64,000 nt of DNA from Mycobacterium sp. (GTDB taxonomy: Bacteria; Actinomycetota; Actinomycetes; Mycobacteriales; Mycobacteriaceae). Below, one piece after another: positions 7,686 through 45,640 of the stretch. The position numbers and the translations under genes are program-made. The notes under the pieces were generated by a model, which saw nothing but the letters and a program-made list of their open reading frames with translations, had not been told where the DNA came from and did no database searches. Position 1 is the first letter of the stretch; each line of letters begins with the position of its first letter. The DNA lies in assembly GCF_002863225.1 (NCBI RefSeq), contig NZ_PKEK01000039.1:124001-188000 (forward strand), given 5' to 3'.

Positions 7686-7710
7686 GTTGTCGACAGCTGT
7701 GAATGGGTAG
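7686..7710 (+). promoter_or_regulatory. Candidate SigF promoter for the 63-aa protein
   Basis: GTTG (7686-7689), 15-nt spacer, GGGTAG (7705-7710). The predicted transcription start lies about 40 bases before the ATG at 7759. One mismatch from GTTT and one in the last -10 base. Confidence 0.5.
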
Positions 7711-7758
7711 CCACTGCTGTGTCGCAGACGCCTGCGGCGTGCAATCAGAGAGGCAACG

Positions 7759-7950
7759 ATGTCTGCACAGGACAGCACAGCGGAGAACTCCGGCGGCGAT
7801 TCCAGCAATGCCGCGGAGCAGACTCAGCGAGCAGCAGAACAATCCGATCGAGTCGGGAGTTACAGCCCGGAGCAGTATCCCGAGGATCCCAGCGCCGCCA
7901 CTCCGCCACTGGATGATGAGAGCGCGTCCGAACCACCCAAAAGCGACTAG
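7759..7950 (+). CDS. Small acidic hydrophilic protein, 63 aa
   Basis: Composed mainly of Ser, Glu, Asp, Gln, Ala and Pro with no hydrophobic core, so probably intrinsically disordered. The ATG follows GAGAGGC, and a SigF-like promoter sits about 50 bases upstream, which raises the likelihood that it is real. Similar short acidic stress proteins are common in mycobacteria, but I cannot name a family. Confidence 0.5.
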   Translation: MSAQDSTAENSGGDSSNAAEQTQRAAEQSDRVGSYSPEQYPEDPSAATPPLDDESASEPPKSD

Positions 7951-7977
7951 AACGGTGAAACCCGTTTGCCGCTGGCG

Positions 7978-8286
7978 TCATGTGGTGAGCAGGTAACGGG
8001 CGATCGCGTCTTCGTCCCAGGAGATACCGTTGCCGGGTTCGGAAGTAGCTGTCAGACAACCACTGTGAGGGCGCAATGGGTGCGCGAGGATCGGTTCGGC
8101 GAGCCGAATGTATTCGAGGTAGCCCGGCTGCGCCACCAGCGGCATCAGGTGGGCGCTGGTCTCGTGGAACAAATGCGAAGACAGCGGCACGTGCGCGGTG
8201 TCGCATAGCGCCGCGGCGGCGAGCCAGCCGGTGACGCCCCCTGTTTTCATCAGATCCAGCATCGCGAGGTCCGCCGCATCACTGCG
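7978..8286 (-). pseudogene. 3' fragment of an enolase-superfamily (mandelate racemase/muconate lactonizing) gene
   Basis: The encoded segment KTGGVTGWLAAAALCD, then SSHLFHETSAHLM and a conserved end region SEPGNGISWDEDAI, matches the C-terminal quarter of mandelate-racemase-like enzymes. That quarter includes the strand 6 GGVTG and strand 8 SSHLFHE regions. The same frame continues upstream as RSDAADLAMLDLMK and then loses similarity where the oppositely oriented MmyB-like fragment begins. The catalytic barrel lysines and metal ligands are absent, so this cannot be an active enzyme. It is interpreted as the relic of a deletion. Confidence 0.7.
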
Positions 8287-8291
8287 AAGCG

Positions 8292-12476: not shown

Positions 12477-12502
12477 ATACCCCGGGTGACGGTAGCGAAA
12501 AC
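12477..12502 (-). promoter_or_regulatory. SigF-type promoter for the GT1 glycosyltransferase
   Basis: On the minus strand GTTT (12502-12499), 16-nt spacer, GGGTAT (12482-12477): a full match to the mycobacterial SigF consensus. Predicted 5' leader of about 95 bases before GTG 12373. Confidence 0.65.
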
Positions 12503-15232: not shown

Positions 15233-15259
15233 TTACCCGTCAGCGACGTTAGCCCAAAC
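15233..15259 (-). promoter_or_regulatory. Possible SigF promoter for the zinc peptidase lipoprotein gene
   Basis: Minus strand GTTT (15259-15256), 17-nt spacer, GGGTAA (15238-15233), about 50 bases before the ATG at 15186. The spacing is at the long limit. Confidence 0.4.
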
Positions 15260-24673: not shown

Positions 24674-24697
24674 CTACCCGCGTTAGGCGCGGGCAAC
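24674..24697 (-). promoter_or_regulatory. Possible SigF promoter for the 86-aa/94-aa operon
   Basis: Minus strand GTTG (24697-24694), 14-nt spacer, GGGTAG (24679-24674). The -10 overlaps a 6-bp inverted repeat (CCCGCG/CGCGGG), so a hairpin or repressor site is an alternative. Confidence 0.4.
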
Positions 24698-24730: not shown

Positions 24731-24756
24731 GTTGTCGACGATCCGTTTACGGGTAA
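24731..24756 (+). promoter_or_regulatory. Candidate SigF promoter for the VOC protein
   Basis: GTTG (24731-24734), 16-nt spacer, GGGTAA (24751-24756), about 37 bases before the ATG at 24793. Confidence 0.5.
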
Positions 24757-25867: not shown

Positions 25868-25893
25868 GTTTCCTGGCGGCGCGGCCGGGGTAC
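25868..25893 (+). promoter_or_regulatory. SigF-type promoter for the FAD-Rieske gene
   Basis: GTTT (25868-25871), 16-nt spacer, GGGTAC (25888-25893). The predicted transcription start falls within a few bases of the ATG at 25904, so the message may be almost leaderless. Confidence 0.6.
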
Positions 25894-27438: not shown

Positions 27439-28149
27439 GTGGCCACCATTGAAGACGAGCTCTTCGAAGCGATGGGCGAGCGGCGCGGAGCCGCGGCTGC
27501 CGATGAGCTGTGTGCGGCTTGTGTGAAGCTCCTGGAAATCGACGCCGCGGCAATCTCGCTGGTCTTCGAAGGTGCCAACATCGGCACGCTGGGCGCGAGC
27601 GGGTCGGCCGCGCGACGGTATGACGAGGAGCAGTTCACGCACGGCGAGGGCCCCTGTCTCGACGCGGTGGCCCGCCGCGCACCTGTCGCGGTGACCGATC
27701 TGGCCGATCCTGCCGAGAACCGTTGGCCGGCGTACGGGCCGGCGATGCTGGCGCACCAGATTCGCGCCGTGTACGCAATGCCGATCGCCGTAGCCGGTGA
27801 GTACGTGGGCGCTCTCGACCTCTACCATTCAGAACCCGCAGCATTGACTGTCGAGCAGGTGGCTGGTTTGGTGGAAGCAGCCGAGCTCGCACAGATACCG
27901 ATTCTGGATCTGCTGGATCAGGACTTCGATCAGGCAGCCGCCTCACCCGGCAGCGACGCCTGGAACGAGCTCGCAGCGCTGACACGCGCTGAAGTCAGCC
28001 AAGCCACGGGAATGCTCATGGCTCAACTGGATATCTCCGCACCCGTCGCCCTTGTCCGGCTACGGGCACACGCCTACACCGTCGGCCGCAGCGCCACTGA
28101 GGTCGCCCGCGACATCTTGCACAACGGCCTGCGATTGGACCCCAACTGA
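27439..28149 (+). CDS. GAF-ANTAR regulator 1
   Basis: 236 aa. GAF-like sensing domain at about 10-155 (FTHGEGPCLDAVARRAPVAV is the typical GEGPCxD segment) and a C-terminal ANTAR RNA-binding domain (about 180-235: LTRAEVSQATGMLMAQLDIS, then ALVRLRAHAYTVGRSATEVA). ANTAR proteins bind paired hexanucleotide RNA hairpins and act as antiterminators. The GTG at 27439 is the only reasonable start. It follows the Rieske frame closely and may share its SigF-type transcript, with a second GAF-ANTAR gene 70 bases downstream. Confidence 0.9.
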   Translation: MATIEDELFEAMGERRGAAAADELCAACVKLLEIDAAAISLVFEGANIGTLGASGSAARRYDEEQFTHGEGPCLDAVARRAPVAVTDLADPAENRWPAYGPAMLAHQIRAVYAMPIAVAGEYVGALDLYHSEPAALTVEQVAGLVEAAELAQIPILDLLDQDFDQAAASPGSDAWNELAALTRAEVSQATGMLMAQLDISAPVALVRLRAHAYTVGRSATEVARDILHNGLRLDPN

Positions 28150-28219
28150 TGCATGACAGCAACCGCGCTGCTGTCCCGATCGCCCGAGAAGCCCCGACCG
28201 GCGAAGGAGGGACCCTGTC

Positions 28220-28978
28220 ATGACCGACACCCCACGAGAGACCCGCATTCTCAACGCTGTCGTCTCCCTGGTCGACAGCCTGCTCGACAGTTTCGATGTT
28301 GTGGAGCTGTTGACCGATCTCAGCGAGCGCTGCACGGAGCTCCTCGACGTCGAAGCGGCCGGTCTGCTGTTGGCCGGCACGCGCGAGTATCTCCACCTGA
28401 TGGCGGCAACGTCCGAGAGGTCCCAAGATGTCGAGTTGTTTCAACTCCAGACCGATGAGGGACCTTGCCTGGACTGCTACGCCCACGGGCATCCGGTCTC
28501 AGTGCCCGACCTTGCGGCCGAACAGCAGCGGTGGCCGCGCTTCGTCCCCGCCGCTGTCGACGCCGGGTTTGCATCAGTCCACGCCGTGCCGATGCGCGCG
28601 GCCAGTACGGTGCTGGGCGCCCTGGGACTGTTCGGAACCAGCCCTGGTGAACCAGACGAAGCCGATCTGCTGATAGCTCAAACCCTGGCCCACATCGCCT
28701 CCGTCGCGATCCTGCAGGGGCATCCCCCCACTCCCGCGAGCGTGCAGCCGCAATTGCGCACGGCCTTGACCAGCCGGATCGTGGTTGATCAAGCCAAGGG
28801 ATTCTTGAGTGAGCGACTAGGCCTTCCCGTCGAGGAAGCCTTCACGCTGCTGCGGCACTACGCACGCGCTCAGGGCAACCACCTCACGGAGGTGTCGCGA
28901 CTCCTGATCAGCGATCCGGCGGCGCGTGAACAGATCCTCGACGGAATTCGAAGCGAGCCAGGCACACGGCGCCGATAA
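28220..28978 (+). CDS. GAF-ANTAR regulator 2
   Basis: 252 aa. GAF domain about 15-165 with QTDEGPCLDCYAHGHPVSVPD and a C-terminal ANTAR domain (IVVDQAKGFLSERLGLPVEE, then AFTLLRHYARAQGNHLTEV). The ATG follows AAGGAGGGA. Clearly related to but diverged from the gene directly upstream (different GAF details), so not a recent duplicate. Probably cotranscribed with it. Confidence 0.92.
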   Translation: MTDTPRETRILNAVVSLVDSLLDSFDVVELLTDLSERCTELLDVEAAGLLLAGTREYLHLMAATSERSQDVELFQLQTDEGPCLDCYAHGHPVSVPDLAAEQQRWPRFVPAAVDAGFASVHAVPMRAASTVLGALGLFGTSPGEPDEADLLIAQTLAHIASVAILQGHPPTPASVQPQLRTALTSRIVVDQAKGFLSERLGLPVEEAFTLLRHYARAQGNHLTEVSRLLISDPAAREQILDGIRSEPGTRRR

Positions 28979-29898: not shown

Positions 29899-29923
29899 GT
29901 TGATTTGCTTGGCTTTTGGGTAT
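29899..29923 (+). promoter_or_regulatory. SigF-type promoter for the ANTAR-only gene
   Basis: GTTG (29899-29902), 15-nt spacer, GGGTAT (29918-29923). The transcription start is expected around 29930, so translation from GTG 29934 would be leaderless or nearly so. The upstream ATG at 29922 lies inside the -10 and is unlikely. Confidence 0.6.
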
Positions 29924-32168: not shown

Positions 32169-32193
32169 GTACCCAATGGGCCTGTGCCTAAAC
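32169..32193 (-). promoter_or_regulatory. SigF-type promoter for the WGxxGxxG protein
   Basis: Minus strand GTTT (32193-32190), 15-nt spacer, GGGTAC (32174-32169). The predicted leader is about 110 bases. The remaining gene-free bases up to 32431 are less GC-rich and presumably hold the promoter of the GAF-ANTAR gene, not recognisable to me. Confidence 0.6.
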
Positions 32194-32431: not shown

Positions 32432-33265
32432 GTGACTGAGTTCGACGCCCAAGCTGAGCGCCAGCCACCTCGGGAGGCTGAGCTGAATGCCGAGCAGGTG
32501 GCTTCCGACGATGTCGATCTGGCGACGGGCTTGCAGGGGATTTCGGCGATCGTCGCCACCGGGCGAAGCCTGGAGCAGGTCTTGGGCGAGGTCGCGATGT
32601 TCGCCGCGCTGGCTATCCCCGACGCGCAGGAGACCGGTGTCGGTGTGACGGTGATCAAACCGGTCGGCACCACGATGGGTGTCCAAACGTGGGCGGCGAC
32701 CTCGGCGGTCGTGCACGAGATCGACGTCATGCAGTACGAATTGCTCAACGAGGGGCCGTGTATCCACTGCATGCAAACCCGGCGAGCGGTGGTGAGCGGC
32801 TCGTTGGGTGCCGACGACCGGTGGCCGCGGTTCGGCGCCAGGGTGGCCCGCCTGGGAGTCGCGTCAGCGCTGGCCTTGCCACTGCTAATTCACGAGCAAG
32901 TAGTCGGCTCCATCAACGTGTATGCCCGCGGCAAAGATGCCTTCGGTGAGCATGCGGTGCGACTGGGCACGGCTTTCGCTGGGCCGGCTGCCGTGTCGGC
33001 GTACAACACCCAGTTGCTGATGGCAGCACAAGAACGAGCCGAGAACCTCCAGCGCGCGTTGGTCAGCCGGAAAACGATCGATCAGGCGATCGGCATCGTT
33101 CGGGGCCGCACCGGGCTCAACGAGGATGAGGCGTTCAACCGGCTCAAGCGCATCAGCCAGAACGAGAACACCAAACTCGCCGAAGTGGCGGAGAGGATCG
33201 TCGAAGAGACGGTGCGACGGGCTCGAAGTCGGCACAGCGGCCCGGGCGAGCGCCCGGAGCACTGA
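32432..33265 (+). CDS. GAF-ANTAR regulator 3
   Basis: 277 aa. GAF domain about 45-190 (LLNEGPCIHCMQTRRAVVSG, LGVASALALPLLI, VVGSINVYARGKDAF) and ANTAR domain about 205-265 (ALVSRKTIDQAIGIVRGRTG, FNRLKRISQNENTKLAEVAE). The GTG start follows AATGAGGAG. It has a same-length paralogue at 50882-51715 with long identical blocks, so the two are products of a duplication within this window. Confidence 0.92.
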   Translation: MTEFDAQAERQPPREAELNAEQVASDDVDLATGLQGISAIVATGRSLEQVLGEVAMFAALAIPDAQETGVGVTVIKPVGTTMGVQTWAATSAVVHEIDVMQYELLNEGPCIHCMQTRRAVVSGSLGADDRWPRFGARVARLGVASALALPLLIHEQVVGSINVYARGKDAFGEHAVRLGTAFAGPAAVSAYNTQLLMAAQERAENLQRALVSRKTIDQAIGIVRGRTGLNEDEAFNRLKRISQNENTKLAEVAERIVEETVRRARSRHSGPGERPEH

Positions 33266-33692: not shown

Positions 33693-33717
33693 ATACCCCG
33701 GCTCGCGGAGATGACAC
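33693..33717 (-). promoter_or_regulatory. Candidate SigF promoter for the SnoaL-like gene
   Basis: Minus strand GTGT (33717-33714), 15-nt spacer, GGGTAT (33698-33693). One mismatch in the -35; the start codon is at 33682. Confidence 0.5.
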
Positions 33718-33734: not shown

Positions 33735-34667
33735 TCAGTCGTTGAGCGCGGCGATTTCGGCGTCAGCGGTCGCTTGGATCAGGTCGAGCAGTTCGACGTC
33801 GAGGCCTGGTGCGAACTCTTCACGACGTTCCGGCGCGATGGTCATGGGGAAACCTTCGGGCATCACCGCGGTGCTGAGCTCGGTTCCATCTTTCGACGGT
33901 GACGCACCCCGGTACAGCCGGTCCGCCTGGCTCTGATCGTCGGCGCTGAACGTGTACTGGATGCTTTGCAAGCCGAGGTCGAGCAGCTTTTTGACTTCCG
34001 GGAACTTCTCGGCATTCGTCTTCGGGATGGGAAGTACCGAACCCCAATCGACCCCCAGCGCCTCCAAGGCTTTCGCGAACGCATTCTCGTGGGCCTGATC
34101 GCGGACGATCAGATAAGCGAGAGTGGAGCGCGCCGCCTTGTTGTCCGTCATCTGGTAGATGCGGCACTTCTGCAGGCGCCCAGTGGATTCCAACATCAAG
34201 TTGTACAGCAGATCGAGCACGAGGTTTCCGCTGTTGTAGACGTACGACCCGCTCCAGGGATTACCGGCCGCGTCGACCGGTAACGCACCTTGGGCGCCCA
34301 CCAAATAGTGATGGATGTTGCCGGTGTCCAGTGCAATCTTCAACGGCGTGGCACCTTTGGCACCCGGCTCATCTACGGAATCGGTTGGTTTGCCTTTGTA
34401 TTCAGGCGAGCCATCCAACAGACGGGAAATGGTGGTTCCGATGAGCTCGACGTGACTGATCTCCTCGGTTCCGACCCCTTGGAGCAAGTCCTTGAAAGGC
34501 TTCGACTTGATGTCGCCGCGAAAGTTGATGCTCTGAAACAGGTACTGCATCATCGTCCGCATCTCGCCGAACTGGCCGCCAAGACCTTCTTGTAGTGCAT
34601 TGGCAGCAGCCGGATCTGGTTCGTCGACGGCGATTTCGTTGATGAACTGCTGGGTGTGCAGATACAT
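33735..34667 (-). CDS. Manganese catalase
   Basis: 310 aa dimanganese catalase that dismutates hydrogen peroxide. Metal-ligand regions are intact: GGQFGEMRTMMQYLFQS, GTEEISHVELI and RDQAHENAFAKALEALG, plus the helix with STGRLQKCRIYQMTDN. The ATG at 34667 follows AGGAG. In spore formers related proteins are found in the coat; in mycobacteria they belong to stress-induced sets. Its neighbour on the same strand encodes a spore-photoproduct-lyase-like enzyme. Confidence 0.93.
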   Translation of the reverse strand: MYLHTQQFINEIAVDEPDPAAANALQEGLGGQFGEMRTMMQYLFQSINFRGDIKSKPFKDLLQGVGTEEISHVELIGTTISRLLDGSPEYKGKPTDSVDEPGAKGATPLKIALDTGNIHHYLVGAQGALPVDAAGNPWSGSYVYNSGNLVLDLLYNLMLESTGRLQKCRIYQMTDNKAARSTLAYLIVRDQAHENAFAKALEALGVDWGSVLPIPKTNAEKFPEVKKLLDLGLQSIQYTFSADDQSQADRLYRGASPSKDGTELSTAVMPEGFPMTIAPERREEFAPGLDVELLDLIQATADAEIAALND

Positions 34668-34996: not shown

Positions 34997-36118
34997 TCAA
35001 GTCCAGTAGAGCGTCTGCGCCATGGGCAGCGTCGCGGCGAGTTCGTTGGCGAACCACGCGCGCAGTTCGGACATGACGTCTTTCGGATAGACATATTTGG
35101 CCGTACCGAACTTGCCGAACTTTCGGGTGCGCGACTCTTCATCCATTTCGAGCTTCGTACCGGGATACCAGCCCAACAGCACGTCCCTGCTGATCGGGGT
35201 GAACCGGTGGGTGATGCATTCGACGGTCAGATCGAGGTCCGGGACGTCGGCTACGGCATCGGCGACCTGACCCAGCAAGGCTCGATACCCGTCTCGCCAG
35301 TGTGGGATCGGCATGATCGGCGCGATGGTCAGTCCGATGGGGTATCCGGCCATCGCCAGCTTCTCCAGCGCCGCGAGGCGTCGCGGTAGGCTGGCGGTGC
35401 CGCCTTCGAACCGTCTGGCTACCGCCTCGGCGTTGACCGACATCCTCACGCGGGTGCGGCCGGCGTGCGGCAGGTCGAGCAGCGGTGCGACGTCGTCGAA
35501 TTTCGTGGTGAATCGCAGACCGACCGGCGCCGCCCAGGCGTGGGTGCCCACGTGCGAGATGGTCGCTGACAAAGAGCCGGTCACCCGCTCCAAAGCCAGC
35601 GGATCGGTGTAGCACGAGGCCTCGAATGTGGTTCCCTCCTCGGCCCTTTCGGCCGATGTCGAGGTGATCGTCCCGCGACCGACGTGATCGTCCATCTCGG
35701 CGAGTATCTCGGGCAGGTTTGCGTAGACCCGGGTGATGGGCGGTCCCGACAGCGAACCGGCGAGATAGCAGTACTGACAGTGTGCGGGGCAACCTTGAGC
35801 GAGGTCGATACGCCAGTCGGCGCTCGGCGGAATGGGCTGGAGACGCCGCTTGCTGGGGGGCGCGACGACCACGGCAAGCGTGCGCTTGGCGAGGGCGTAA
35901 ACGGCGCGCTCGTTTTCGCCGCGTATCGGCGGCAGCCGATCGCCCGGCAGCACCTGGATGTCGGTGACCCCGGCAGCTTCACACCGCGCGACAATGCTTG
36001 CGCCATGCGGCAGTTCGAAGGCCGATCGGGTCACCAACACCTGAGCCGGTGTCCAGGGTGTCATCGGTTCGGGCCGGGGAGGTTGAGCCGCGGAGGAAGA
36101 GAGCGAGGTAGTCGTCAT
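34997..36118 (-). CDS. Spore-photoproduct-lyase-family radical SAM protein
   Basis: 373 aa. The radical SAM cluster motif is CPAHCQYC (C-x3-C-x2-C) within DLAQGCPAHCQYCYLAG, the spacing used by spore photoproduct lyase. Other family segments are CYTDPLALERVTGSL, RMSVNAEAVARRFEGGTAS, GYPIGLTIAPIMPI and the C-terminal KFGKFGTAKYVYPKDVM. In Bacillus this family repairs UV-induced thymine dimers in spores; the role in a non-sporulating actinobacterium is unproven. The start at ATG 36118 removes a non-conserved extension. Confidence 0.88.
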   Translation of the reverse strand: MTTTSLSSSAAQPPRPEPMTPWTPAQVLVTRSAFELPHGASIVARCEAAGVTDIQVLPGDRLPPIRGENERAVYALAKRTLAVVVAPPSKRRLQPIPPSADWRIDLAQGCPAHCQYCYLAGSLSGPPITRVYANLPEILAEMDDHVGRGTITSTSAERAEEGTTFEASCYTDPLALERVTGSLSATISHVGTHAWAAPVGLRFTTKFDDVAPLLDLPHAGRTRVRMSVNAEAVARRFEGGTASLPRRLAALEKLAMAGYPIGLTIAPIMPIPHWRDGYRALLGQVADAVADVPDLDLTVECITHRFTPISRDVLLGWYPGTKLEMDEESRTRKFGKFGTAKYVYPKDVMSELRAWFANELAATLPMAQTLYWT

Positions 36119-36759: not shown

Positions 36760-36784
36760 GTTGATGTGCGCCGACGCTGGGTAT
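36760..36784 (+). promoter_or_regulatory. SigF-type promoter of the glycosyltransferase operon
   Basis: GTTG (36760-36763), 15-nt spacer, GGGTAT (36779-36784), about 100 bases before the first gene. Confidence 0.6.
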
Positions 36785-36884: not shown

Positions 36885-37949
36885 TTGCGTGTCGCGTCAG
36901 TGCCGGCTTCGCATGTCTACGTTCGCCACTTGTCGGATCCAGTCTGCGCGAATGGTGCAGTGCGGCTGCAGGACCCGGTCCCCGAAGATGGCCGGACCGT
37001 GCCATGGGGCTGGTGGCCTCCGGTGATGCTGGAACCCGGGTGGGTGACCGCCAACCATGCCCGCTTCGACGTGTTCCACGTGCATTTCGGATTCGATGCC
37101 GTGGAGCCGGTTGCGCTTGCCCGAGTAATGCAGGAGTTGAAGGAACACGGTAAGCCGCTGCTGTACACGATTCACGACTTGCGCAATCCGCACCATCCCG
37201 ACCCCGAGGCGCACTCCGTACTGCAGGACATGCTCGTGAAGGCTGCCGACGACTTGATCACCCTGACGTCGGGTGCGGCACAAGAGATTCAGCGCCGTTG
37301 GGGTCGTGCCTGCCACGTCCTGCCACACCCGCATGTCCTCGAACCCGACCACATCGACCGGGCCCGGCGGGAATCCACCGAGTTCGTCATCGGGCTGCAT
37401 GCGAAGAGCCTCCGCGCCAACATGGACCCCCTACCTGTTGTCGAAGCGCTGGCCGACATCGTGACGCGGTTACCTCGGGCCAGCCTCCGGATCGACGTCC
37501 ACGACGAAATTTTTGATCCTGACAATTACTGGTTCGCGCCGCGGGCCGGCGCGGCCCTGTTGCGGTGTGACCGGCGCGAGCAGGTACACGTCCGCGTGCA
37601 CCCTTATTTCTCGGATGACGAACTCTGGGACTACCTGGAGTCGCTGACGGTCTCGGTGTTGCCGTATCGCTTCGGTAGCCACTCCGGGTGGATAGAAGCC
37701 TGCTTCGATCTCGGCACGGCCGTCATTGCTCCGAGTTGCGGATTTTACGACCAGCAAAAGCCCTGCGGTGTATTCGGTTTCACCACCGAAAACTTCGACG
37801 CGGAATCGTTGCGACGCGCGGTTGACGACGCCTACCGCCGATGGAACACGGGCGAACCGGCTCCGCGTGCGAGCTGGCCCGCGCGGCGTGCCGAACGCAC
37901 TGCGATCGCGGCGGCGCACGACCGTCTGTACGAAGACGCACTGCGATGA
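36885..37949 (+). CDS. GT4-like glycosyltransferase, first gene of the cassette
   Basis: 354 aa GT-B protein: VFHVHFGFDAVEPVALARV, PLLYTIHDLRNPHHPDPEAH, VLPHPHVL, and a C-terminal half with SVLPYRFGSHSGWIEACFDLG and APSCGFYDQQKP. The TTG start (MRVASVPASHVYVRHL) follows AAGGAG at eight bases. Its stop overlaps the next gene's start (ATGA). Donor and acceptor unknown. Cytoplasmic, no membrane segment. Confidence 0.82.
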   Translation: MRVASVPASHVYVRHLSDPVCANGAVRLQDPVPEDGRTVPWGWWPPVMLEPGWVTANHARFDVFHVHFGFDAVEPVALARVMQELKEHGKPLLYTIHDLRNPHHPDPEAHSVLQDMLVKAADDLITLTSGAAQEIQRRWGRACHVLPHPHVLEPDHIDRARRESTEFVIGLHAKSLRANMDPLPVVEALADIVTRLPRASLRIDVHDEIFDPDNYWFAPRAGAALLRCDRREQVHVRVHPYFSDDELWDYLESLTVSVLPYRFGSHSGWIEACFDLGTAVIAPSCGFYDQQKPCGVFGFTTENFDAESLRRAVDDAYRRWNTGEPAPRASWPARRAERTAIAAAHDRLYEDALR

Positions 37950-39181
37950 CTGCTCAGCTCCGGATAGCGCTGATCGCGTCGAGTCGCTACCCCATCAGCC
38001 AACCGTTCGCGGGCGGTTTGGAAGCGCATGTGTGGCACCTGTCGCGAGCCCTCGCCGGTCGCGGCCACGAGGTGTCGGTGTTTGCCGCTCCAGGGTCGGA
38101 TCGTGACCTGGACTGCCGCACCCTCGCCGTGCGGCACCTTGTGATCACGGAGTCAGCCCGGGCAGATGCGTCGATGTCGCCGGACGCGTTCATGGCAGAC
38201 CACCACGCCTACCTGACGCTGATGATGCAGCTCGCCGCTGCCGGCCGAGGCGATTTCGACATCATCCACAATCACAGCCTGCATTACCTTCCGGTGGCCA
38301 TGGCGTCCATGGTGCCCATCCCGATGCTGACGACGGTTCACACCCCGCCGACGCCCTGGTTGGAATCGGCCATCGACGCCTCCGGTGGGGTGGGGACGCA
38401 ATTCGCCGCGGTGTCCGCGCACACCGCAGAACTGTGGCGCGGCACTATTCCGCAGATGACGGTGGTGCCGAACGGGATCGATCCCCATCGGTGGCCGCTG
38501 GGGGCCGGCGGCGGGCCGCTGCTGTGGTTCGGGCGGATCACCGCGGAGAAGGCGCCGCATCTCGCGATCGCGGTGGCCCGACGCGCGGGCCGGTCCCTGG
38601 AACTGGTCGGGCCGATCTCCGACCCGCGGTACTTCGAGGATCAGGTGCAGCCGCATCTGAACGAAAACATCCGCTACTCCGGCCATCTCGACCAGGGTCG
38701 GCTGGCAACGGTGATCGGCCGGGCCTCCGCGGTGCTCGTGACCCCGATGTGGGACGAACCATACGGCCTCGTCGTTGCCGAGGCGATGTGTTGCGGAACC
38801 CCAGTGGTGGCCTTCGCGCGCGGCGGAATACCGGAACTCGTTGTGTTGCAGTCGGGTCGGCTGGTGGCTCCCGGAGATGTCGAAGCCATGGCGGCCGCGA
38901 TTCCGGATGCCATCAGGCTTCCGAGGCCCACGGTCCGGGATCACGCGCTCCGGCACTGCTCTTCGGAGGCGATGGTCTCGACCTACTTACGTCTATACCG
39001 AAAAATGCTCGAACATCGTGAGGACAGCCATGATCGGTTACTACATACACCACCAGGGCTTCGGTCATCTGGCTCGAGCGATCAGCATCTGCGAACAGCT
39101 GCAATACCCGACGACAGCCTTGAGTTCGATGGATATTCCCGAGCCGCACCCGTTCGCCGCAGTCGTGAAGCTACCGCGTGA
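37946..39181 (+). CDS. GT4 glycosyltransferase, second gene of the cassette
   Basis: 411 aa with standard GT4 landmarks: QPFAGGLEAHVWHLSRALAG, DIIHNHSLHYLPVA, TVVPNGIDPHRWP, LLWFGRITAEKAPH and EPYGLVVAEAMCCGTPVVAF. The conserved domain ends near LYRKMLEH (residue 360). The frame then runs 50 residues further, overlapping the next gene by 152 bases, with unusual composition; a frameshift or simply a non-conserved tail is possible. Coupled to the upstream gene by ATGA. Confidence 0.88.
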   Translation: MTAQLRIALIASSRYPISQPFAGGLEAHVWHLSRALAGRGHEVSVFAAPGSDRDLDCRTLAVRHLVITESARADASMSPDAFMADHHAYLTLMMQLAAAGRGDFDIIHNHSLHYLPVAMASMVPIPMLTTVHTPPTPWLESAIDASGGVGTQFAAVSAHTAELWRGTIPQMTVVPNGIDPHRWPLGAGGGPLLWFGRITAEKAPHLAIAVARRAGRSLELVGPISDPRYFEDQVQPHLNENIRYSGHLDQGRLATVIGRASAVLVTPMWDEPYGLVVAEAMCCGTPVVAFARGGIPELVVLQSGRLVAPGDVEAMAAAIPDAIRLPRPTVRDHALRHCSSEAMVSTYLRLYRKMLEHREDSHDRLLHTPPGLRSSGSSDQHLRTAAIPDDSLEFDGYSRAAPVRRSREATA

Positions 39182-40052
39182 CGACCAGGAAGACCAGGTG
39201 GTGGAACCGACCGCGCACGGCGCTTTGCACTGGGCGCCACACCACCACCACGGTTTTCGGGCACGGATGAATGCGGTCTTGCACTGGATCGACACCGCCT
39301 GTCCAGCCGCTGTCGTGACTGACATCTCCGTGGAAATCGCAACGTTCGTGCGGCTGCTGGGTGTGCCGGTCATTGTTGTGGCGTTGCCGGGCAAACGTTT
39401 CGATGCTCCGCATGCGCTGGTGCACCGTCTCGCGGACCACATCATCGCGGCATGGCCGCGGGAGCTCTACCTTCCGCCGTGGCTGCAACCTCATGCGGAG
39501 AAGACGAGTTTCGTAGGAGGTATCAGCCGGTACGACGGGCGGGCATGTCCATCGGCTGAACCACCCGACGATGCCACCGCTTCGACAGGCACCCGGGTGC
39601 TGGTTCTATCCGGAGCGGGCGACAGTGTCGGAAGCCGGCTGAGCGATTGTGCGGCGGCCTGTCCCGGGACGACCTGGACCGCAATCGGCGGAGCCGACAA
39701 TGGTTGGGTCGACGACCCTTGGCCGCACATCTGTGCTGCCGACGTCGTGGTCACCCACGCCGGACAAAGTGCCGTCGCCGATGTCGCAGCGGCGCGACGC
39801 CGGGCCGTGGTGATCGCCCAACCTCGGCCTTACGACGAGCAGCCGGCGACTGCAACGGTATTGCGCCGGTACCGGCTTGCCACCGTCGCACACCGGTGGC
39901 CGGATGTTCGTGCGTGGCCCGGTCTGATCGCGCACGCGACGGCAGGCGATCCGGAGAAATGGTCACGCTGGGAGGTAGCGGGCGCTGCGTCGCGCGCGGC
40001 TCGGGCGGTCGAGTCGACCGTGCAACGTTGCGCGTTGGCGAGTGTGTCGTGA
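39030..40052 (+). CDS. GT28/MurG-like glycosyltransferase, third gene of the cassette
   Basis: 340 aa. N-terminal MIGYYIHHQGFGHLARAIS carries the GxGH motif of GT28-like enzymes and the C-terminal half has VVTHAGQSAVADVAAARR and AQPRPYDEQPAT, the donor-binding end. Translation begins inside the 3' part of the preceding gene and its own stop overlaps the next start (GTGA). Likely transfers a sugar from a nucleotide or lipid-linked donor; specificity unknown. Confidence 0.78.
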   Translation: MIGYYIHHQGFGHLARAISICEQLQYPTTALSSMDIPEPHPFAAVVKLPRDDQEDQVVEPTAHGALHWAPHHHHGFRARMNAVLHWIDTACPAAVVTDISVEIATFVRLLGVPVIVVALPGKRFDAPHALVHRLADHIIAAWPRELYLPPWLQPHAEKTSFVGGISRYDGRACPSAEPPDDATASTGTRVLVLSGAGDSVGSRLSDCAAACPGTTWTAIGGADNGWVDDPWPHICAADVVVTHAGQSAVADVAAARRRAVVIAQPRPYDEQPATATVLRRYRLATVAHRWPDVRAWPGLIAHATAGDPEKWSRWEVAGAASRAARAVESTVQRCALASVS

Positions 40053-40879
40053 GAACCGCGGTGATCACCGTCGTCCGAGGGCGTGGCCCCCACTTACGTC
40101 GTCAACTCCAGGGGTTGGCGCGTAGCACCCGGCGTCCCGACGTGCACATCGTGGTCGCACTCGACGACCTGCACGTCGCGGACATCGTCGCCGACGAAGG
40201 TTCATCGGCATCGGTCGTCGATCTGAAAGTGGCTGAGCCGTTGCCGATTGCGTACGGCCGCAATCAAGGCGCGGCGGCGGCACTCGCCAGGTCCGCCGAG
40301 TTGCTGGTGTTCCTCGACGTCGACTGCATCCCTGACACTGAATTGATCGCGCGGTACCACGACGCGGCCGAACAAATGCGGGGTGACAATGCTCTGCTGT
40401 GCGGGCCGGTGACATACCTACCTCCGCCGGGCCCGGGTGGCTACATACTCGATGACCTGCGGGCGCGAGTCGATCCCCACCCGGCGCGCCCCAGCCCACC
40501 CGACGACCAGGTGGTGGTGACAACGGACTACGCGTTGTTCTGGTCCCTGTCGTTCGCGGTCACCTCGGCCACCTGGACCAAGATCGGCGGCTTCTGCGAG
40601 CGCTATCGGGGTTACGGTGGTGAAGACACAGACTTCGCACAATGTGCTGCAGCGCAGGATATTTCGATGCAGTGGGTGGGTGGTGCACATGCTTTTCACC
40701 AATTCCATCCGACCAGCGATCCGCCCGTCGAGCACGTCGAGGACATCGTGCGCAACGCCAGGATCTTCCACCGCCGCTGGGGTTGGTGGCCGATGCAGGG
40801 CTGGCTGGCCGGGTTCGAACGAGACCGCATGATCACCCGTGACGTCGCGGGGCGACCACGCATGGTGGTCCCTTCCTGA
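40049..40879 (+). CDS. GT2 glycosyltransferase, fourth gene of the cassette
   Basis: 276 aa GT-A protein: AVITVVRGRGPHLRRQLQGL, AYGRNQGAAAAL, metal-binding FLDVDCIPD, and the C-terminal GGFCERYRGYGGEDTDFA with the conserved ED. No membrane helix, so it works in the cytoplasm with the other three. It starts at the GTGA overlap with the third gene. A weak hairpin (GGCCGG/CCGGCC) follows about 15 bases after the stop. Confidence 0.88.
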   Translation: MRTAVITVVRGRGPHLRRQLQGLARSTRRPDVHIVVALDDLHVADIVADEGSSASVVDLKVAEPLPIAYGRNQGAAAALARSAELLVFLDVDCIPDTELIARYHDAAEQMRGDNALLCGPVTYLPPPGPGGYILDDLRARVDPHPARPSPPDDQVVVTTDYALFWSLSFAVTSATWTKIGGFCERYRGYGGEDTDFAQCAAAQDISMQWVGGAHAFHQFHPTSDPPVEHVEDIVRNARIFHRRWGWWPMQGWLAGFERDRMITRDVAGRPRMVVPS

Positions 40880-41052: not shown

Positions 41053-41079
41053 GTTTTAGGGTCAGCCAACGCGGGGTAC
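41053..41079 (+). promoter_or_regulatory. Candidate SigF promoter for the second CsbD gene
   Basis: GTTT (41053-41056), 17-nt spacer, GGGTAC (41074-41079), about 40 bases before the ATG at 41122. Confidence 0.5.
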
Positions 41080-41121: not shown

Positions 41122-41295
41122 ATGGGCGCCGAAGACAAAGCAAGCAACAAGATCGAAGACCTGGGCGGCAAGGCCAAAGAGGCTGTCGGCAAGGTAACCG
41201 GTGATGACAGCACGAAGAACGAGGGCAAAATCGACCAGGCCAAGTCGAGCCTGAAAGATGCCGGCGAAAAGGTGAAGGACGCCTTCAAGAGCTAG
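41122..41295 (+). CDS. CsbD-family stress protein, 57 aa
   Basis: Compact CsbD protein: MGAEDKASNKIEDLGGKAKE, VGKVTGDDSTKNEGKIDQAK, VKDAFKS. This is the minimal family length, too short to appear in a 60-residue cutoff search. The ATG follows GGGGCGATGAG. It sits between the glycosyltransferase operon and the convergent PIG-L gene, with its own SigF-like promoter. Confidence 0.9.
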   Translation: MGAEDKASNKIEDLGGKAKEAVGKVTGDDSTKNEGKIDQAKSSLKDAGEKVKDAFKS

Positions 41296-41398: not shown

Positions 41399-42760
41399 TC
41401 ATGCGGTGTCCGCGCATTCGCGGTACACCGACCGGGGCTCTCCCCATACCTGAATGGTGAGGTCGGCGTCACTGTAGCGAGCCCGTAGTGGCAGGTCGAA
41501 CACCGCAGCCGCTTGCGCGTGAGCGGTGGGTCCATCCAAAGGGATGTTCTCGGTGGGAGCAGACCAGTTGGCGATCAAGATCTCCCCGCGCGGGCGCAGT
41601 CGGCGACGTACCGCGCGCAAAGTCGCCAAAAGCTCGGGGCCATCGAGGAAGTACGTGACCTCGGACAGCACGATCAGGTCAAAGTCCGAGTCGGGAATGT
41701 CAGACGGGGCAGCGCCGAGGAGCCAGTCGACACTGTCGGATCGTGCGCGAGCTATCTCGAGCGCCCTTGCGCTGGCATCCATTCCGACGACGAGGTCGGC
41801 ACGCTCACGCAGCTGGGCGGAGATTTGTCCTGTGGCGCAACCGATTTCCAGGACCTTCGAGTAACGCCGCCGACCCAGGCAGGCGAGCGTGATTTCGACG
41901 CGCCGTTTTTCGTACTCCGACGCATCAAGCTGCCACGGGTCGGTCATGCCGTCGTCGATCATCGTGTCGAACGGCTCAGCTATCTGCGCCCGCGAACGAT
42001 GAGGTTCGACATCACCGGCAACACGCGAAGCGAGCTCGCGCGGTAGGGGAATCAGGACGGTCTCCATCACTCGGTGCGCTCGCGCCGAGACCGCGGATCC
42101 AATCACAGGAAAACCGTCGGCTGAGGTGAGTTGGCTTGTGTAGCAATGGATTGCGGCGGCCTTTGCAATCAGAGCCCGCAGTGGCGGCGCAATGACGCGC
42201 ATCCGGTCCCAGTCGATATCGTCAGGTGTCGCCCAATGCCAGAGCCAGACCGGGTAGTGCAGCAACGCCGCCCCGCGGTCGCGTGTCACCGCCTCGGCGG
42301 CGGCGGCCAACGCTTCGTGGTCCGAGTGACCGTCACATTCGACCGGCGCGAACAACAGGGTCTGCGCGTCGACGAGTTCCAGGAGCCGCTCGCCCATCTC
42401 GCCGATCGCGTTGTGCAGATCGCCGTCGGGCAGGTTCCACCAGACTGTCTTGATGTGGGCACCCAGGACGGCAGTGGCGCGCTCGGCTTCGACGCGGCGC
42501 TCGGTGGAACCGGGTCCGTTGCCGCCATGGGTGGCGACCACGACAGTCACCGTCGCCGCGCTGTCGGCGAGGTCGGCCAAGGCGGCACCCAAAGCCAATG
42601 TCTCGTCATCGGGGTGGGGCGCCAGCAGCACGACATGGGGATATCGCTTAAGGAGGGAGTCGAGTCCCAGCCGCGGAACGTCGTCCCATCGGGAATCGAG
42701 CAGCCACGTCGGCTCGTCAGTCCCGCTCTCGCGGTGGGTGAATGGTCGCGTGTCAGGCAT
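41399..42760 (-). CDS. Bifunctional PIG-L deacetylase / SAM-dependent methyltransferase
   Basis: 453 aa fusion. Residues 40-240 form a PIG-L/LmbE zinc deacetylase: APHPDDETLALGAALADL (HPDDE at 49-53) and CDGHSDHEALAAA (HxxH). The relatives include MshB, which deacetylates GlcNAc-type sugars. Residues about 285-450 are a class I methyltransferase: KVLEIGCATGQISAQL, DLVVGMDASARALEIA, FDLIVLSEVTYFL. So one polypeptide may remove an acetyl group and methylate the product or a neighbouring group. The start at ATG 42760 overlaps the end of a 31-residue frame. SigF-like promoter about 150 bases upstream. Confidence 0.9.
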   Translation of the reverse strand: MPDTRPFTHRESGTDEPTWLLDSRWDDVPRLGLDSLLKRYPHVVLLAPHPDDETLALGAALADLADSAATVTVVVATHGGNGPGSTERRVEAERATAVLGAHIKTVWWNLPDGDLHNAIGEMGERLLELVDAQTLLFAPVECDGHSDHEALAAAAEAVTRDRGAALLHYPVWLWHWATPDDIDWDRMRVIAPPLRALIAKAAAIHCYTSQLTSADGFPVIGSAVSARAHRVMETVLIPLPRELASRVAGDVEPHRSRAQIAEPFDTMIDDGMTDPWQLDASEYEKRRVEITLACLGRRRYSKVLEIGCATGQISAQLRERADLVVGMDASARALEIARARSDSVDWLLGAAPSDIPDSDFDLIVLSEVTYFLDGPELLATLRAVRRRLRPRGEILIANWSAPTENIPLDGPTAHAQAAAVFDLPLRARYSDADLTIQVWGEPRSVYRECADTA

Positions 42761-42915: not shown

Positions 42916-42940
42916 ATACCCACTGGGCTGCCATCCAATC
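42916..42940 (-). promoter_or_regulatory. Candidate SigF promoter for the PIG-L/methyltransferase gene
   Basis: Minus strand GATT (42940-42937), 15-nt spacer, GGGTAT (42921-42916). One mismatch in the -35. Confidence 0.5.
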
Positions 42941-42997
42941 GCGGTACGGCGCCCGCGCAGATAGACGGAGCTGCCATACGAGAGCCGGAGCGCCCAG

Positions 42998-43786
42998 CTA
43001 ACCGGCCGAACCGGCGCCCTCCAGTGGCGGCAGATCGCCCGTGGTAGCCACGCTCTCGGCGATGTCGGCAACCTTCACGTTGAGTCGCTGCGACGCACCC
43101 CTGAGCAGTGCGAACGCCTGGTCGGCGGTGATGCGATGGCGTTCCATGAGAACGCCTTTGGCCTGACCGATGAGGTCGCGGCTGGCGATCGCGCGTTGCA
43201 ACTGGTCGGCGCGCTGGGCTTCGAGCAAAGCCAGGGCGCCGTGCGTCGCGTAGAGATCGGCGAGCCTCTTGGCGGAGTCGTCGAAAGCAACGGGTGAGCG
43301 GGCGTAGAGGCTCAACGAGCCCAGCCGGCGGTCGTCGACCCACAATGGGACGCACAACATCGAGTGAATCCCCAACTCCAGGCCTGCGGCGGCGAATTCG
43401 GGCCAGCGCTGGTCGACCGCGAGATCGTCGACGTGAATGCTCGCCTGCTTGCGGGACGCATCAATGCACGGCCCCCGTTTGGTGCGTTGCTGAAGCGCGT
43501 CCAACTGCGGAGGTGCCTTGCCGATTGTCGCCTGGGGTTCGAACCGGCCGCCCGCGTACAGATTGAGCCCGGCCTCGTCGGCGCCGTTGATGGCCGCGGT
43601 AGCCGCCGTGAGAATGGCGATCAAAGTGCCCTGGAGGTCGGCCTCTTCGACGTGCAACGCCCGGCAGAGCACGTGCAGCGCGTCGAATTCCTTGTCGCCC
43701 AGCGCTCGGAGGCCGTCGAGCTCTGAAAGCAACTCCAGATCACCGTCGACCGCCCCGGGCGCCGATTTCTCCTGCGAACGAGACAT
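42998..43786 (-). CDS. GAF-ANTAR regulator 4
   Basis: 262 aa. GAF domain about 45-190 (QQRTKRGPCIDASRKQASIH, LGIHSMLCVPLWVDDRRLGS) and ANTAR domain about 200-255 (AIASRDLIGQAKGVLMERHR, FALLRGASQRLNVKVADIA). Diverged from the other ANTAR proteins in the window. Located next to the PIG-L gene on the same strand, about 150 bases upstream of its leader frame. Confidence 0.92.
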   Translation of the reverse strand: MSRSQEKSAPGAVDGDLELLSELDGLRALGDKEFDALHVLCRALHVEEADLQGTLIAILTAATAAINGADEAGLNLYAGGRFEPQATIGKAPPQLDALQQRTKRGPCIDASRKQASIHVDDLAVDQRWPEFAAAGLELGIHSMLCVPLWVDDRRLGSLSLYARSPVAFDDSAKRLADLYATHGALALLEAQRADQLQRAIASRDLIGQAKGVLMERHRITADQAFALLRGASQRLNVKVADIAESVATTGDLPPLEGAGSAG

Positions 43787-43865
43787 GCCGCAATTGTTGC
43801 AGCCATCGGGTTTGCCCTGCCACTTTCCGCGGTCTTTCGACCCCGGGGGATGGTCGCGCGGCAGT

Positions 43866-45548
43866 TCACGGCCTGCTGAATGTCAGCATGCCCTCTTCGT
43901 GGTCCAGCGCCCTCCCGAGAACACGGAGGCCCTGATCGGGAAGCATGCCGGCGTCGCGCCAGCGGACGAGTTCATCACGCTGGGCATCGATCGCCGCCCG
44001 GCGCATCTCGAGCAGTGCCTCATCTTGGGGAAATGCCGGGATGCCGTCATTGTCCGTCACTTCGAAGGCGTCGAGTTGTTGTTGCCGGGACTTGAGCCGA
44101 GCCGAGAGCTGCGCGCGTACGGTGTCGATGGCTTGGCGCTCGACGGTGTCGTGGCTCTGCTGGCTGAGCGCGTCCATCCGTTCGATCGCGGCCCGGATCG
44201 CGGCAACCCCGGCGAGTTTACGAAGCCGCGACTCGTCGGCGGGCTTCGCGCGAATACCCAAGGCGCGGGCCAGCGGGGCGAAGGTGAGCCCTTGTCCGAC
44301 CAGCGTCACGAGGACGACGACGAACGTGCAGAACAGCAACAGATCGCGGCAGGGAAACGGTGTACCGTTCGCGGTCACCAGCGGCACCGTGAAAATCGCG
44401 GCGAGGCTCACGACGCCGCGGGTGCCGGCCCAACTCAGCACGAAAACCTCACGGCCGTTGAGCCGCTGCGAGTCGTGATCGACCGGGGCCCGGGTCGGGA
44501 CGGAATCGGTGGAGTCGTCGAGGTCCGCACCGGAGACATCGCCGAGACGGGTGTGCAGCGCACGCGGCAGCATCTGGGTGACGAGTAACCACAGCGGCCG
44601 GATCACCAGCACCACCGCGACGGTGATACTCACGGCCAACACGATCGTGGACACCGGGAAAGCATGGAGTCCGTCGAGTATGTGGGGGAGTTGCTGACCG
44701 ATGAGCAGAAAGACGAAGCCTTCGAGCAGGAAGTTGACCAATCGCCAGACGGCACGCGTCTGCAGCCGGCTCGCCCCGGATTCCGAACGGGGTAGATCGT
44801 GGCCGACGATCAGTCCGCACACCACCACGGCCAGCACGCCCGAAGCTGACACCTCTTCGGCCAACAGGTAGGCCACGAAAGGTGTGGCCAGGGACACCGC
44901 GTTGGCGGTCAGAATGTCCGAGGTCCATCGGCTGACGAGACGCCGCAGGACCGCGATTGCGACACCCACCGCGAGACCGCCGACCGCGGCCAACAGGAAT
45001 GTGCCGGCCGCTGACGGCGCGGAAAACCCACCCCCGCTGGCCGCCGCGATCGCCACGGACAAGGTGGTGAGCGCCGTCGCGTCGTTGAGCAGGCCTTCGC
45101 CCTCGATCAAGGTGATGATGTTGGCCGGTAGGCCGACCCTGCGCGCGACAGCGAGCGCGGCCACCGGGTCGGGGGGTGCCACGGCCGCACCGAGCGCCGT
45201 GCCCACCGCGAACGTCGCACCTCCAACCAGCACAGCGAACGCGATCCCGACCGAAAACGCGGTCAGCAGCACGAGGACCACGGACAGACTGATCACCGCG
45301 CGCAGGTTGCGCCGGATCTCGATGAGAGACGACTCGAGAGCCGCGTAGTAGAGCAGCGGCGGCAAGATGCAGTACAGCGCAGGCTCAGGGCGAAGAGCGA
45401 TATTCGGTCCGGGCAGAAACGCGTAGGCGATACCGCCCAGAGCCAGCAGCGCCGCGCTGGGTAACCCGGTGCGTTCCGCGATCCAGTGCACCGCCACGAT
45501 GACGGCGACGGCAACCAGCAGCAGTACCAGACCCATATGCAGACTCAC
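43866..45548 (-). CDS. CPA1-type Na+/H+ antiporter
   Basis: 560 aa. About twelve membrane helices to residue 400 with GTALGAAVAPPDPVAALAV and IEGEGLLNDATALTTL, the substrate-site segments of CPA1 exchangers, and LSWAGTRGVVSLAAIF near the end of the membrane part. A cytoplasmic, helical C-terminal region of about 130 residues follows. Probable role in cytoplasmic pH and sodium homeostasis. The GTG at 45548 starts just before the first helix; ATG 45536 is an alternative. Confidence 0.9.
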   Translation of the reverse strand: MSLHMGLVLLLVAVAVIVAVHWIAERTGLPSAALLALGGIAYAFLPGPNIALRPEPALYCILPPLLYYAALESSLIEIRRNLRAVISLSVVLVLLTAFSVGIAFAVLVGGATFAVGTALGAAVAPPDPVAALAVARRVGLPANIITLIEGEGLLNDATALTTLSVAIAAASGGGFSAPSAAGTFLLAAVGGLAVGVAIAVLRRLVSRWTSDILTANAVSLATPFVAYLLAEEVSASGVLAVVVCGLIVGHDLPRSESGASRLQTRAVWRLVNFLLEGFVFLLIGQQLPHILDGLHAFPVSTIVLAVSITVAVVLVIRPLWLLVTQMLPRALHTRLGDVSGADLDDSTDSVPTRAPVDHDSQRLNGREVFVLSWAGTRGVVSLAAIFTVPLVTANGTPFPCRDLLLFCTFVVVLVTLVGQGLTFAPLARALGIRAKPADESRLRKLAGVAAIRAAIERMDALSQQSHDTVERQAIDTVRAQLSARLKSRQQQLDAFEVTDNDGIPAFPQDEALLEMRRAAIDAQRDELVRWRDAGMLPDQGLRVLGRALDHEEGMLTFSRP

Positions 45549-45615
45549 CCCACCATCATCCCGGCATCTCGACGCAGCCGACATTCGGAGCGGCCGCCTC
45601 AGGGCCATTTCGTGG

Positions 45616-45640
45616 GTTGCCGATTTCGGCGCCTGGGTAC
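45616..45640 (+). promoter_or_regulatory. Candidate SigF promoter for the 90-aa membrane protein
   Basis: GTTG (45616-45619), 15-nt spacer, GGGTAC (45635-45640), about 55 bases before ATG 45696. Confidence 0.5.

What the first reader, a model, noticed from the sequence alone, without database searches (positions are those of the whole stretch)
7686..45640. Dense set of SigF-type promoters defines a general-stress island
Fourteen sites of the form GTTT/GTTG (or one mismatch) with a 14-17 nt spacer and GGGTA(T/C/G/A) sit shortly upstream of start codons: 7686, 12477, 15233, 22245, 24674, 24731, 25868, 29899, 32169, 33693, 36760, 41053, 42916, 45616. Six have GTTT and six have GGGTAT; 22245 (15-nt spacer) and 12477 (16-nt spacer) are exact. 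None was noticed upstream of genes after 46 kb. They precede small charged proteins, a CsbD gene, a WGxxGxxG protein, an ANTAR protein, glycosyltransferases, FAD-Rieske and PIG-L/methyltransferase genes, which looks like a sigma-B/F-type regulon.
Basis: partly seen in the sequence, partly recalled or inferred. Interest (0 to 1): 0.75.

Follow-up and report, generated by a model that had tools for sequence, protein, structure and literature searches.

The report
SigF stress-promoter island, unlinked to sigF
A 37-kb stretch of a Mycobacterium genome holds eight exact copies of a rare promoter signature, about sixteen times the expected number, each within 300 bases upstream of a gene; several are kept at the same place in related species, so this is likely a cluster of genes that one stress sigma factor, SigF, would switch on together.

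Summary
The strings are real and their density is not chance. Exact GTTT-N14-17-GGGTA occurs 47 times in the 5.95-Mb genome; eight lie in this 64-kb window (0.51 expected). All eight are intergenic and within 300 nt upstream of a gene, against 19 of the other 39.

Among the relatives' loci fetched, the exact site recurs at the FAD-oxidoreductase (28 of 29), the glycosyltransferase (13 of 14), ADH (4 of 5) and WGxxGxxG (3 of 3). Only the -10 recurs at the 57-aa protein (19 of 19) and glyoxalase (9 of 10). It does not recur at the Zn-peptidase (0 of 29) or PIG-L (0 of 27).

Corrections: exact sites at 29658 and 49479 were missed; 49479 is conserved and beyond 46 kb. 7686 and 45616 precede no convincing gene. 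28 of 40 genes there have no site. GTTG forms show no genome-wide excess (95 versus 116 reversed).

sigF lies on another contig, with exact sites upstream of its own operon. SigF regulons and a SigF-dense block at sigF are known in M. smegmatis. This is a further island, unlinked to sigF; SigF dependence is inferred.

The parts
12477..12502 (-). exact SigF-type site, 104 nt upstream of UDPGT-like glycosyltransferase 11102-12373
   Evidence: conservation not tested
15233..15259 (-). exact SigF-type site, 47 nt upstream of Zn-peptidase-like gene 13699-15186
   Evidence: absent in 29 relatives' homologues of 52-59% identity
22245..22269 (-). exact SigF-type site, 64 nt upstream of 57-aa charged protein 22008-22181
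   Evidence: GGGTA at -42..-67 in 19 of 19 relatives' loci, GGTT-type -35 in 16 of 19, exact GTTT in 0 of 19
24674..24697 (-). GTTG site upstream of 86-aa protein 24365-24625, with a UsfY-like gene 24028-24312 downstream on the same strand
   Evidence: own distant paralog (C1:322396-322575) has an exact GTTT site 9 nt upstream; of 5 homologues in other genomes 2 have a GTTG/GTGT-type site and 3 none
24731..24756 (+). GTTG site 37 nt upstream of glyoxalase 24793-25149
   Evidence: GGGTA at -33..-53 in 9 of 10 relatives, GTGT-type -35 in 4 of 10, exact GTTT in 0
25868..25893 (+). exact SigF-type site of the FAD-dependent oxidoreductase gene
   Evidence: exact and positionally conserved in 28 of 29 relatives' loci
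25904..27190 (+). FAD-dependent oxidoreductase (DAO); conserved ATG at 25904 read from the sequence
   Evidence: the Rieske part lies in another frame (27054-27416)
   Evidence: conservation not tested beyond one homologue without a site (L159)
29899..29923 (+). GTTG site 11 nt upstream of ANTAR gene 29934-30293
   Evidence: no site at the one relative's homologue (L159)
32169..32193 (-). exact SigF-type site 120 nt upstream of WGxxGxxG protein 31777-32049
   Evidence: exact at -107/-108 in 3 of 3 homologues met in the fetched loci (49-55% identity)
33693..33717 (-). GTGT-N15-GGGTAT site 10-11 nt upstream of SnoaL-like gene 33293-33682
   Evidence: same place in 1 of 1 relative, as GTTG (L278)
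33735..34667 (-). Mn catalase, no lax site within 200 nt here; own distant paralog (28%) on contig C51 has an exact site at -141
34997..36040 (-). spore photoproduct lyase family protein, no lax site found
36760..36784 (+). GTTG site upstream of glycosyltransferase genes 36960, 37946, 40142
   Evidence: exact GTTT at -164..-209 in 13 of 14 homologues of >=61% identity, 0 of 10 below 52%
36960..40879 (+). glycosyltransferase-like genes (36960-37949, 37946-39181, 40142-40879)
   Evidence: 36960 only by a weak NCBIfam match
41053..41079 (+). exact SigF-type site 43 nt upstream of CsbD gene 41122-41295
   Evidence: own CsbD paralog on C72 has exact site at -50; GGTT-type in 3 of 4 other loci, two of them near-identical
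41399..42760 (-). PIG-L deacetylase / methyltransferase fusion
42916..42941 (-). one-mismatch site 156 nt upstream of PIG-L gene; weak
   Evidence: 0 of 27 relatives exact, only 3 of them >=59% identical
45616..45640 (+). GTTG site, target gene unclear
   Evidence: exact at -10/-11 in 4 of 5 orthologs of 82-87%
27439..28978 (+). two GAF-ANTAR regulators (27439-28149, 28220-28978)
32432..33265 (+). GAF-ANTAR regulator
42998..43786 (-). GAF-ANTAR regulator
7686..7710 (+). GTTG site listed by reader; no same-strand gene for 1,141 nt; probably chance

Best explanation
This 37-kb stretch (about 12.4-49.5 kb) is likely a SigF-regulon island: several single genes and short operons, each with its own predicted SigF promoter (GTTT, 14-17 nt, GGGTA), sit close together but far from the sigF gene. 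Shown: the sites, their enrichment, their positions upstream of genes, and conservation of several of them in relatives. Inferred: when an RsbW-type anti-sigma factor releases SigF under stress or in stationary phase, RNA polymerase with SigF starts at these sites one by one, sometimes giving near-leaderless mRNAs (site ends 10-11 nt before the start codon at 49479, 33693 and 29899). The products would be glycosyltransferases, redox and detoxifying enzymes, small proteins (CsbD, UsfY-like, WGxxGxxG) and one ANTAR RNA-binding regulator that could pass the signal on after transcription has begun. In the relatives looked at, the FAD-oxidoreductase and glycosyltransferase genes keep their promoter but mostly lie apart, so the island is best read as a gathering of promoter-bearing units, not as one operon.
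For: 8 of 47 exact genome sites in 1.1% of the genome. 8 of 8 intergenic and <=300 nt upstream of genes in an 82%-coding window, against 19 of 39 elsewhere. Conserved position with diverged spacers: 28 of 29, 13 of 14, 4 of 5, 3 of 3; -10 only, 19 of 19 and 9 of 10. One sigma factor over the SigBFG cut-off, also over the dedicated SigF cut-off (491 vs 372 bits), with exact sites upstream of its HATPase/sigF genes. Of ten genes behind exact sites elsewhere in the genome that were scanned, five have a Pfam domain, among them a trehalose-synthase-like amylase, a hemerythrin and an Mn catalase, families listed as SigF-dependent in M. smegmatis (PMC4694148 Table 1). In two close relatives (G122, G027) a second SigF-family sigma gene sits directly upstream of the glycosyltransferase ortholog, with exact sites before both. 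Consensus agrees with PMC7693655 (GGWWT-N16-17-GGGTAY, passage).
Against: No transcript data. 15233 (0 of 29) and 42916 (0 of 27) are not conserved. 7686 and 45616 have no clear gene. GTTG forms are not enriched genome-wide (95 vs 116), and the exact form only slightly (47 vs 39). 28 of 40 genes starting in the stretch have no lax site within 200 nt, among them Mn catalase, photoproduct lyase, the Na+/H+ antiporter and four of its five ANTAR genes; one of the 12 that do (46655) has only a GTTC-GGGAA form. The relatives' rows are related to one another and are not independent events (L256 and L262 carry 97%-identical sigma genes). Gene starts come from my own codon model.
Confidence: 0.85

Rival explanations
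1. The sites are chance matches in GC-rich intergenic DNA.
For: Genome-wide the exact pattern barely exceeds its reversed control (47 vs 39), and GTTG does not exceed it (95 vs 116).
Against: Local density (P 4e-8; 1 of 20,000 simulations); 8 of 8 upstream of genes; position conserved in relatives with diverged spacers.
Confidence: 0.05
2. The sites are promoters, but of another sigma factor with a similar -10 rather than SigF.
For: No binding or expression data here; some -35 elements are GTTG, GTGT or GGTT.
Against: Only one sigma factor of the genome passes the SigBFG cut-off; the motif equals the published SigF consensus, and the genes reduced in the M. smegmatis sigF mutant also include GTTG, GTGT and GGTT forms; exact sites lie upstream of sigF's own genes.
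Confidence: 0.07
3. It is a mixed stress and metabolism neighbourhood in which some genes carry SigF promoters; their closeness is an accident of gene order and not under selection.
For: Most genes have no site; gene order is not kept as a block in the 20 relatives fetched; the glycosyltransferase ortholog is close to the FAD-oxidoreductase in only 3 of 14 relatives.
Against: Scan statistic; partial linkage in some relatives: WGxxGxxG beside the FAD-oxidoreductase in 3 of 29 loci, the 57-aa gene within 25 kb of it in 12 of 28 relatives holding both; SigF-dense blocks elsewhere in the genus.
Confidence: 0.3

Closest known systems
SigF regulon of Mycobacterium smegmatis, including the SigF-dense block MSMEG_1758-1804 at the sigF locus (PMC4694148 Table 1)
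   Same: Same promoter consensus, spacer range and distance to start codon (many at 8-11 nt); many separate promoters close together; UsfY and small proteins; Mn catalase, FAD-dependent oxidoreductase, glyoxalase and hemerythrin families elsewhere in the regulon.
   Different: Here sigF lies on another contig, and the island holds glycosyltransferases, PIG-L/methyltransferase, CsbD, WGxxGxxG and several GAF-ANTAR genes, names not seen in that table block.
Sigma-B general stress regulon of Bacillus (recalled)
   Same: CsbD-type and catalase-type stress proteins under a partner-switching sigma factor.
   Different: Other phylum; not compared by any search.
SigF-dense regions around distant PIG-L homologues in other mycobacteria (L019, L020, L025, L033) and G068 5.97-6.03 Mb
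   Same: 4-6 exact sites in about 21 kb, or 9 in 53 kb; 9 of 18 sites examined lie 10-25 nt before a called gene.
   Different: Different gene content; their PIG-L homologues are 37-40% identical and have no exact site of their own.

Membership tests
Mycobacterial SigF promoter | -35 GTTT/GGWWT, 14-19 nt spacer, -10 GGGTA(Y) | tested here: met
   8 exact sites in window, 6 of 8 with T or C after GGGTA; consensus from passages of PMC4694148 and PMC7693655
Mycobacterial SigF promoter | lies shortly upstream of a gene | tested here: met
   8 of 8 exact sites
Mycobacterial SigF promoter | conserved at orthologs | tested here: met
   met for 25868, 32169, 36760, 49479; -10 only for 22245 and 24731; not met for 15233 and 42916; 12477, 29658 and 45616 not tested
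Mycobacterial SigF promoter | genome encodes SigF | tested here: met
   TIGR02980 308.6 bits, cut-off 234.35; NF005514 491.1 bits, cut-off 372
Mycobacterial SigF promoter | transcription lost in a sigF mutant | not testable with these tools
   needs RNA data
SigF block at the sigF locus (MSMEG_1758-1804 type) | many SigF promoters in one region | tested here: met
SigF block at the sigF locus (MSMEG_1758-1804 type) | contains the rsbW-sigF operon | tested here: not met
SigF block at the sigF locus (MSMEG_1758-1804 type) | contains usfY | tested here: inconclusive
   NF041247 at 24028-24312, 84.7 bits, below the curated 100-bit cut-off

The most novel reading that the evidence does not exclude
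A regulon-gathering island: genes that each carry their own SigF promoter and mostly lie apart in relatives have been collected at one place away from sigF, together with several GAF-ANTAR RNA-binding regulators that add a post-initiation layer, so that co-location itself is under selection although no operon links the genes.
Probability: 0.3. Interest if true: 0.6.

Novelty: new member of a known kind. Interest (0 to 1): 0.45.

Why it matters
It gives a promoter-level, conservation-backed list of likely SigF targets in a non-model Mycobacterium, and shows that about a sixth of the exact SigF-type sites of a genome (8 of 47) can sit in 1% of it, away from sigF. If co-location is selected, it offers a case to ask why separately promoted genes of one regulon gather.

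Tried and rejected
One big operon: rejected, since the genes lie on both strands with their own sites. Chance: rejected for the main sites. Island conserved as a block: not found in the 20 relatives fetched around the FAD-oxidoreductase gene; only partial linkages. PIG-L site 42916 as conserved promoter: not supported (only 3 of 27 homologues are >=59% identical, and several alignments began inside the protein, so the upstream stretch there is approximate). Rfam elements or tRNA genes in the window: none at the gathering threshold or by ARAGORN. ANTAR with SigF in mycobacteria: the search gave 9 papers, none of whose listed titles or abstract openings joins the two (listing only); 'stress island' with sigma factor and actinobacteria gave 0. 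I claim only that these two searches did not show the island in print.

The relatives' loci are the best hits returned per search, not all genomes, and relatives are not independent of one another. Sites elsewhere in the genome were judged on stretches of about 3-20 kb, so a gene cut off by the stretch may have been missed.

Papers: PMC4694148, passages plus the whole of section 9; PMC7693655, passages; all others, listing only.
Full report
Observation. Twelve match GTT[T/G]-N14-17-GGGTA exactly and two have one mismatch (33693, 42916).

Density. The exact GTTT form occurs 47 times in the 5,946,835-base genome, 39 times when read backwards. Eight of the 47 are in the 64-kb window (expected 0.51; binomial P 4e-8; 1 of 20,000 simulations of 47 random points had 8 in some 64-kb interval). 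The next densest 64-kb interval apart from the window has three. The GTTG form occurs 95 times, against 116 for its reversed control, 6 of them in the window (expected 1.02, P 6e-4). GTTG sites are therefore believable only with further evidence.

Position. I called genes with a codon model trained on this genome and classified all 47 exact sites. In the window 8 of 8 are intergenic and within 300 nt upstream of a same-strand gene. Of the 39 others, 19 are, 8 are intergenic but farther or with no gene called in the stretch, and 12 fall in called genes. One of the 12, on C72, is 50 nt before a CsbD paralog that the caller missed. The window is 82% coding. For GTTG, 4 of 6 window sites are upstream of genes. 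Reversed controls in the same 570 kb: exact 4, all in genes, 1 of them in the window; GTTG 15, 1 in the window. With a laxer motif, 12 of 40 genes starting in 12-50 kb have a site within 200 nt, against 2 of 27 in the flanks and 0 of 67 for the reversed lax motif. So many genes of the stretch (Mn catalase, photoproduct lyase, Na+/H+ antiporter, most ANTAR genes) have none of their own.

Conservation. FAD-oxidoreductase gene, site 25868: exact and at nearly the same place (-58 to -72) in 28 of 29 relatives' loci, while the spacer letters differ; the miss is L127. A conserved ATG at 25904, ten bases after the site, is the likely start. Glycosyltransferase 36960, site 36760: exact GTTT at -164 to -209 in 13 of 14 homologues of >=61% identity and in 0 of 10 below 52%, one of these from this genome; the window's own copy is GTTG. 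ADH 48543, site 49479: exact at -10/-11 in 4 of 5 orthologs of 82-87%, GGTT-type in the fifth, nothing in a 53% homologue. WGxxGxxG 31777, site 32169: exact at -107/-108 in 3 of 3 homologues met in the fetched loci. The 57-aa protein 22008, site 22245: GGGTA at -42 to -67 in 19 of 19, GGTT-type -35 in 16 of 19, exact GTTT in none. Glyoxalase 24793, site 24731: GGGTA at -33 to -53 in 9 of 10, GTGT-type -35 in 4, exact GTTT in none. SnoaL 33293, site 33693: 1 of 1. CsbD 41122: own paralog exact; three of four other loci GGTT-type, two of these nearly identical. 86-aa protein 24365, site 24674: own distant paralog exact; 2 of 5 homologues elsewhere with a GTTG/GTGT-type site, 3 with none. Against: Zn-peptidase 13699, site 15233, 0 of 29 relatives (52-59% identical; a closer 75% paralog in this genome was not examined); PIG-L 41399, site 42916, 0 of 27, of which only three are >=59% identical, and none at the own C51 paralog; ANTAR 29934, no site at the single relative found. 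The numbers refer to the best-scoring loci that the searches returned, not to every genome searched, and the relatives are not independent of one another.

Which sigma factor. One protein of the genome passes the SigBFG cut-off (C10:84514-85185, 308.6 bits) and the dedicated SigF cut-off (491.1 vs 372). Exact sites lie at C10:85992, upstream of a HATPase (anti-sigma-like) gene and sigF, and at C10:86464, upstream of a 127-aa gene before them. Ten genes behind exact sites elsewhere were scanned; five have Pfam domains: alpha-amylase/maltogenic-amylase-C (trehalose-synthase-like), the HATPase, Mn catalase, a polyketide-cyclase-like protein and hemerythrin. Trehalose synthase, hemerythrin and Mn catalase are listed as reduced in the M. 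smegmatis sigF mutant (PMC4694148 Table 1). The published consensus is GTTT-N14-19-GGGTA or GGWWT-N16-17-GGGTAY. Table 1 also lists GTTG, GTGT and GGTT forms, many at 8-11 nt from the start codon. In two close relatives, G122 and G027, a SigF-family sigma gene (61% identical to this genome's SigF; over the SigBFG cut-off, just under the dedicated one) sits directly upstream of the glycosyltransferase ortholog, with exact sites before the sigma gene and between the two.

Island or scatter. The window has no sigF; contig lengths put sigF at least about 197 kb away. In 20 relatives' stretches fetched around the FAD-oxidoreductase gene, it is mostly a lone SigF gene: 28 exact sites in 400 kb, 20 of them at its own promoter, and 2 reversed. 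Partial linkages exist: WGxxGxxG next to it in 3 of 29 loci; the glycosyltransferase within about 3 kb in 3 of 14 relatives, G068, G007 and G131; the 57-aa gene within 25 kb in 12 of 28 relatives that hold both, with 2 far away on one contig and 14 on different contigs. SigF-dense regions of other content occur in G068 (9 exact sites in 53 kb) and around PIG-L homologues in named mycobacteria (54 exact sites, 8 reversed, in 27 loci of 523 kb), though the two closest of those loci have only one site between them. The own genome also has a smaller related set on contig C51, with PIG-L 63% identical, an Mn catalase with an exact site, and several ANTAR matches.

Mechanism. Shown: sites, enrichment, placement, conservation. 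Inferred: release of SigF by partner switching, separate initiation at each site, short or near-absent leaders at 49479, 33693 and 29899, and a stress-phase output of glycan, redox and small-protein genes, with an ANTAR regulator as a possible second layer. Only one of the six ANTAR genes of the window has a candidate SigF site, so the second layer is weakly supported.

The FAD-oxidoreductase gene itself. Pfam finds only the FAD part in the 25904-27190 frame; part of a Rieske domain is found in another frame, 27054-27416, while a relative has one frame of 510 aa (L128). The window's copy is thus apparently interrupted, by mutation or by an assembly error. I describe this only.

Novelty. The promoter, the sigma factor, several of the gene families and the existence of a SigF-dense block are known from M. 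smegmatis. This is a further island, unlinked to sigF, in another species. The new reading, that promoter-bearing units gather at one place, fits the scatter seen in relatives but was not tested statistically across genomes.

Noticed in passing
window 27439-28149, 28220-28978, 29934-30293, 32432-33265, 42998-43786, 50882-51715: Six ANTAR-domain proteins in 24 kb, five with GAF domains (29934 is below the Pfam cut-off); the genome has 24 ANTAR matches. Only 29934 has a candidate SigF site.
   Followed up: partly
window 25904-27416: FAD-oxidoreductase gene with the Rieske part in another frame: apparent interruption or assembly error.
   Followed up: partly
L256 463-1275 (+) and L262 2727-3539 (-), genomes G122 and G027: A SigF-family sigma gene, 61% identical to the window genome's SigF, directly upstream of the glycosyltransferase ortholog, with exact SigF-type sites before the sigma gene and between the two; the two sigma genes are 97% identical.
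   Followed up: partly
G000 contig C51 (loci L118, L119): Second, smaller related set: PIG-L/methyltransferase 63% identical, Mn catalase with exact SigF site, several ANTAR matches, CsbD homologue; contig of 32 kb.
   Followed up: partly
window 34997-36040: Spore photoproduct lyase family protein next to an Mn catalase in a Mycobacterium, a non-spore-former by common account (recalled).
   Followed up: no
L019, L033 and other mycobacterial loci around distant PIG-L homologues: Up to six exact SigF-type sites in 21 kb, several 10-25 nt before glycosyltransferase-, epimerase- and topoisomerase-like genes (labels read by eye from the sequence).
   Followed up: partly
G068 C1:5974037-6026857 (L188-L191): Nine exact SigF-type sites in 53 kb; no SigF match there with this genome's SigF.
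   Followed up: partly
window 24365-24625 and C1:322396-322575: Small-protein family with a shared YVGRT...GAEARS-like stretch, two copies seen in the genome, both behind SigF-type sites.
   Followed up: partly
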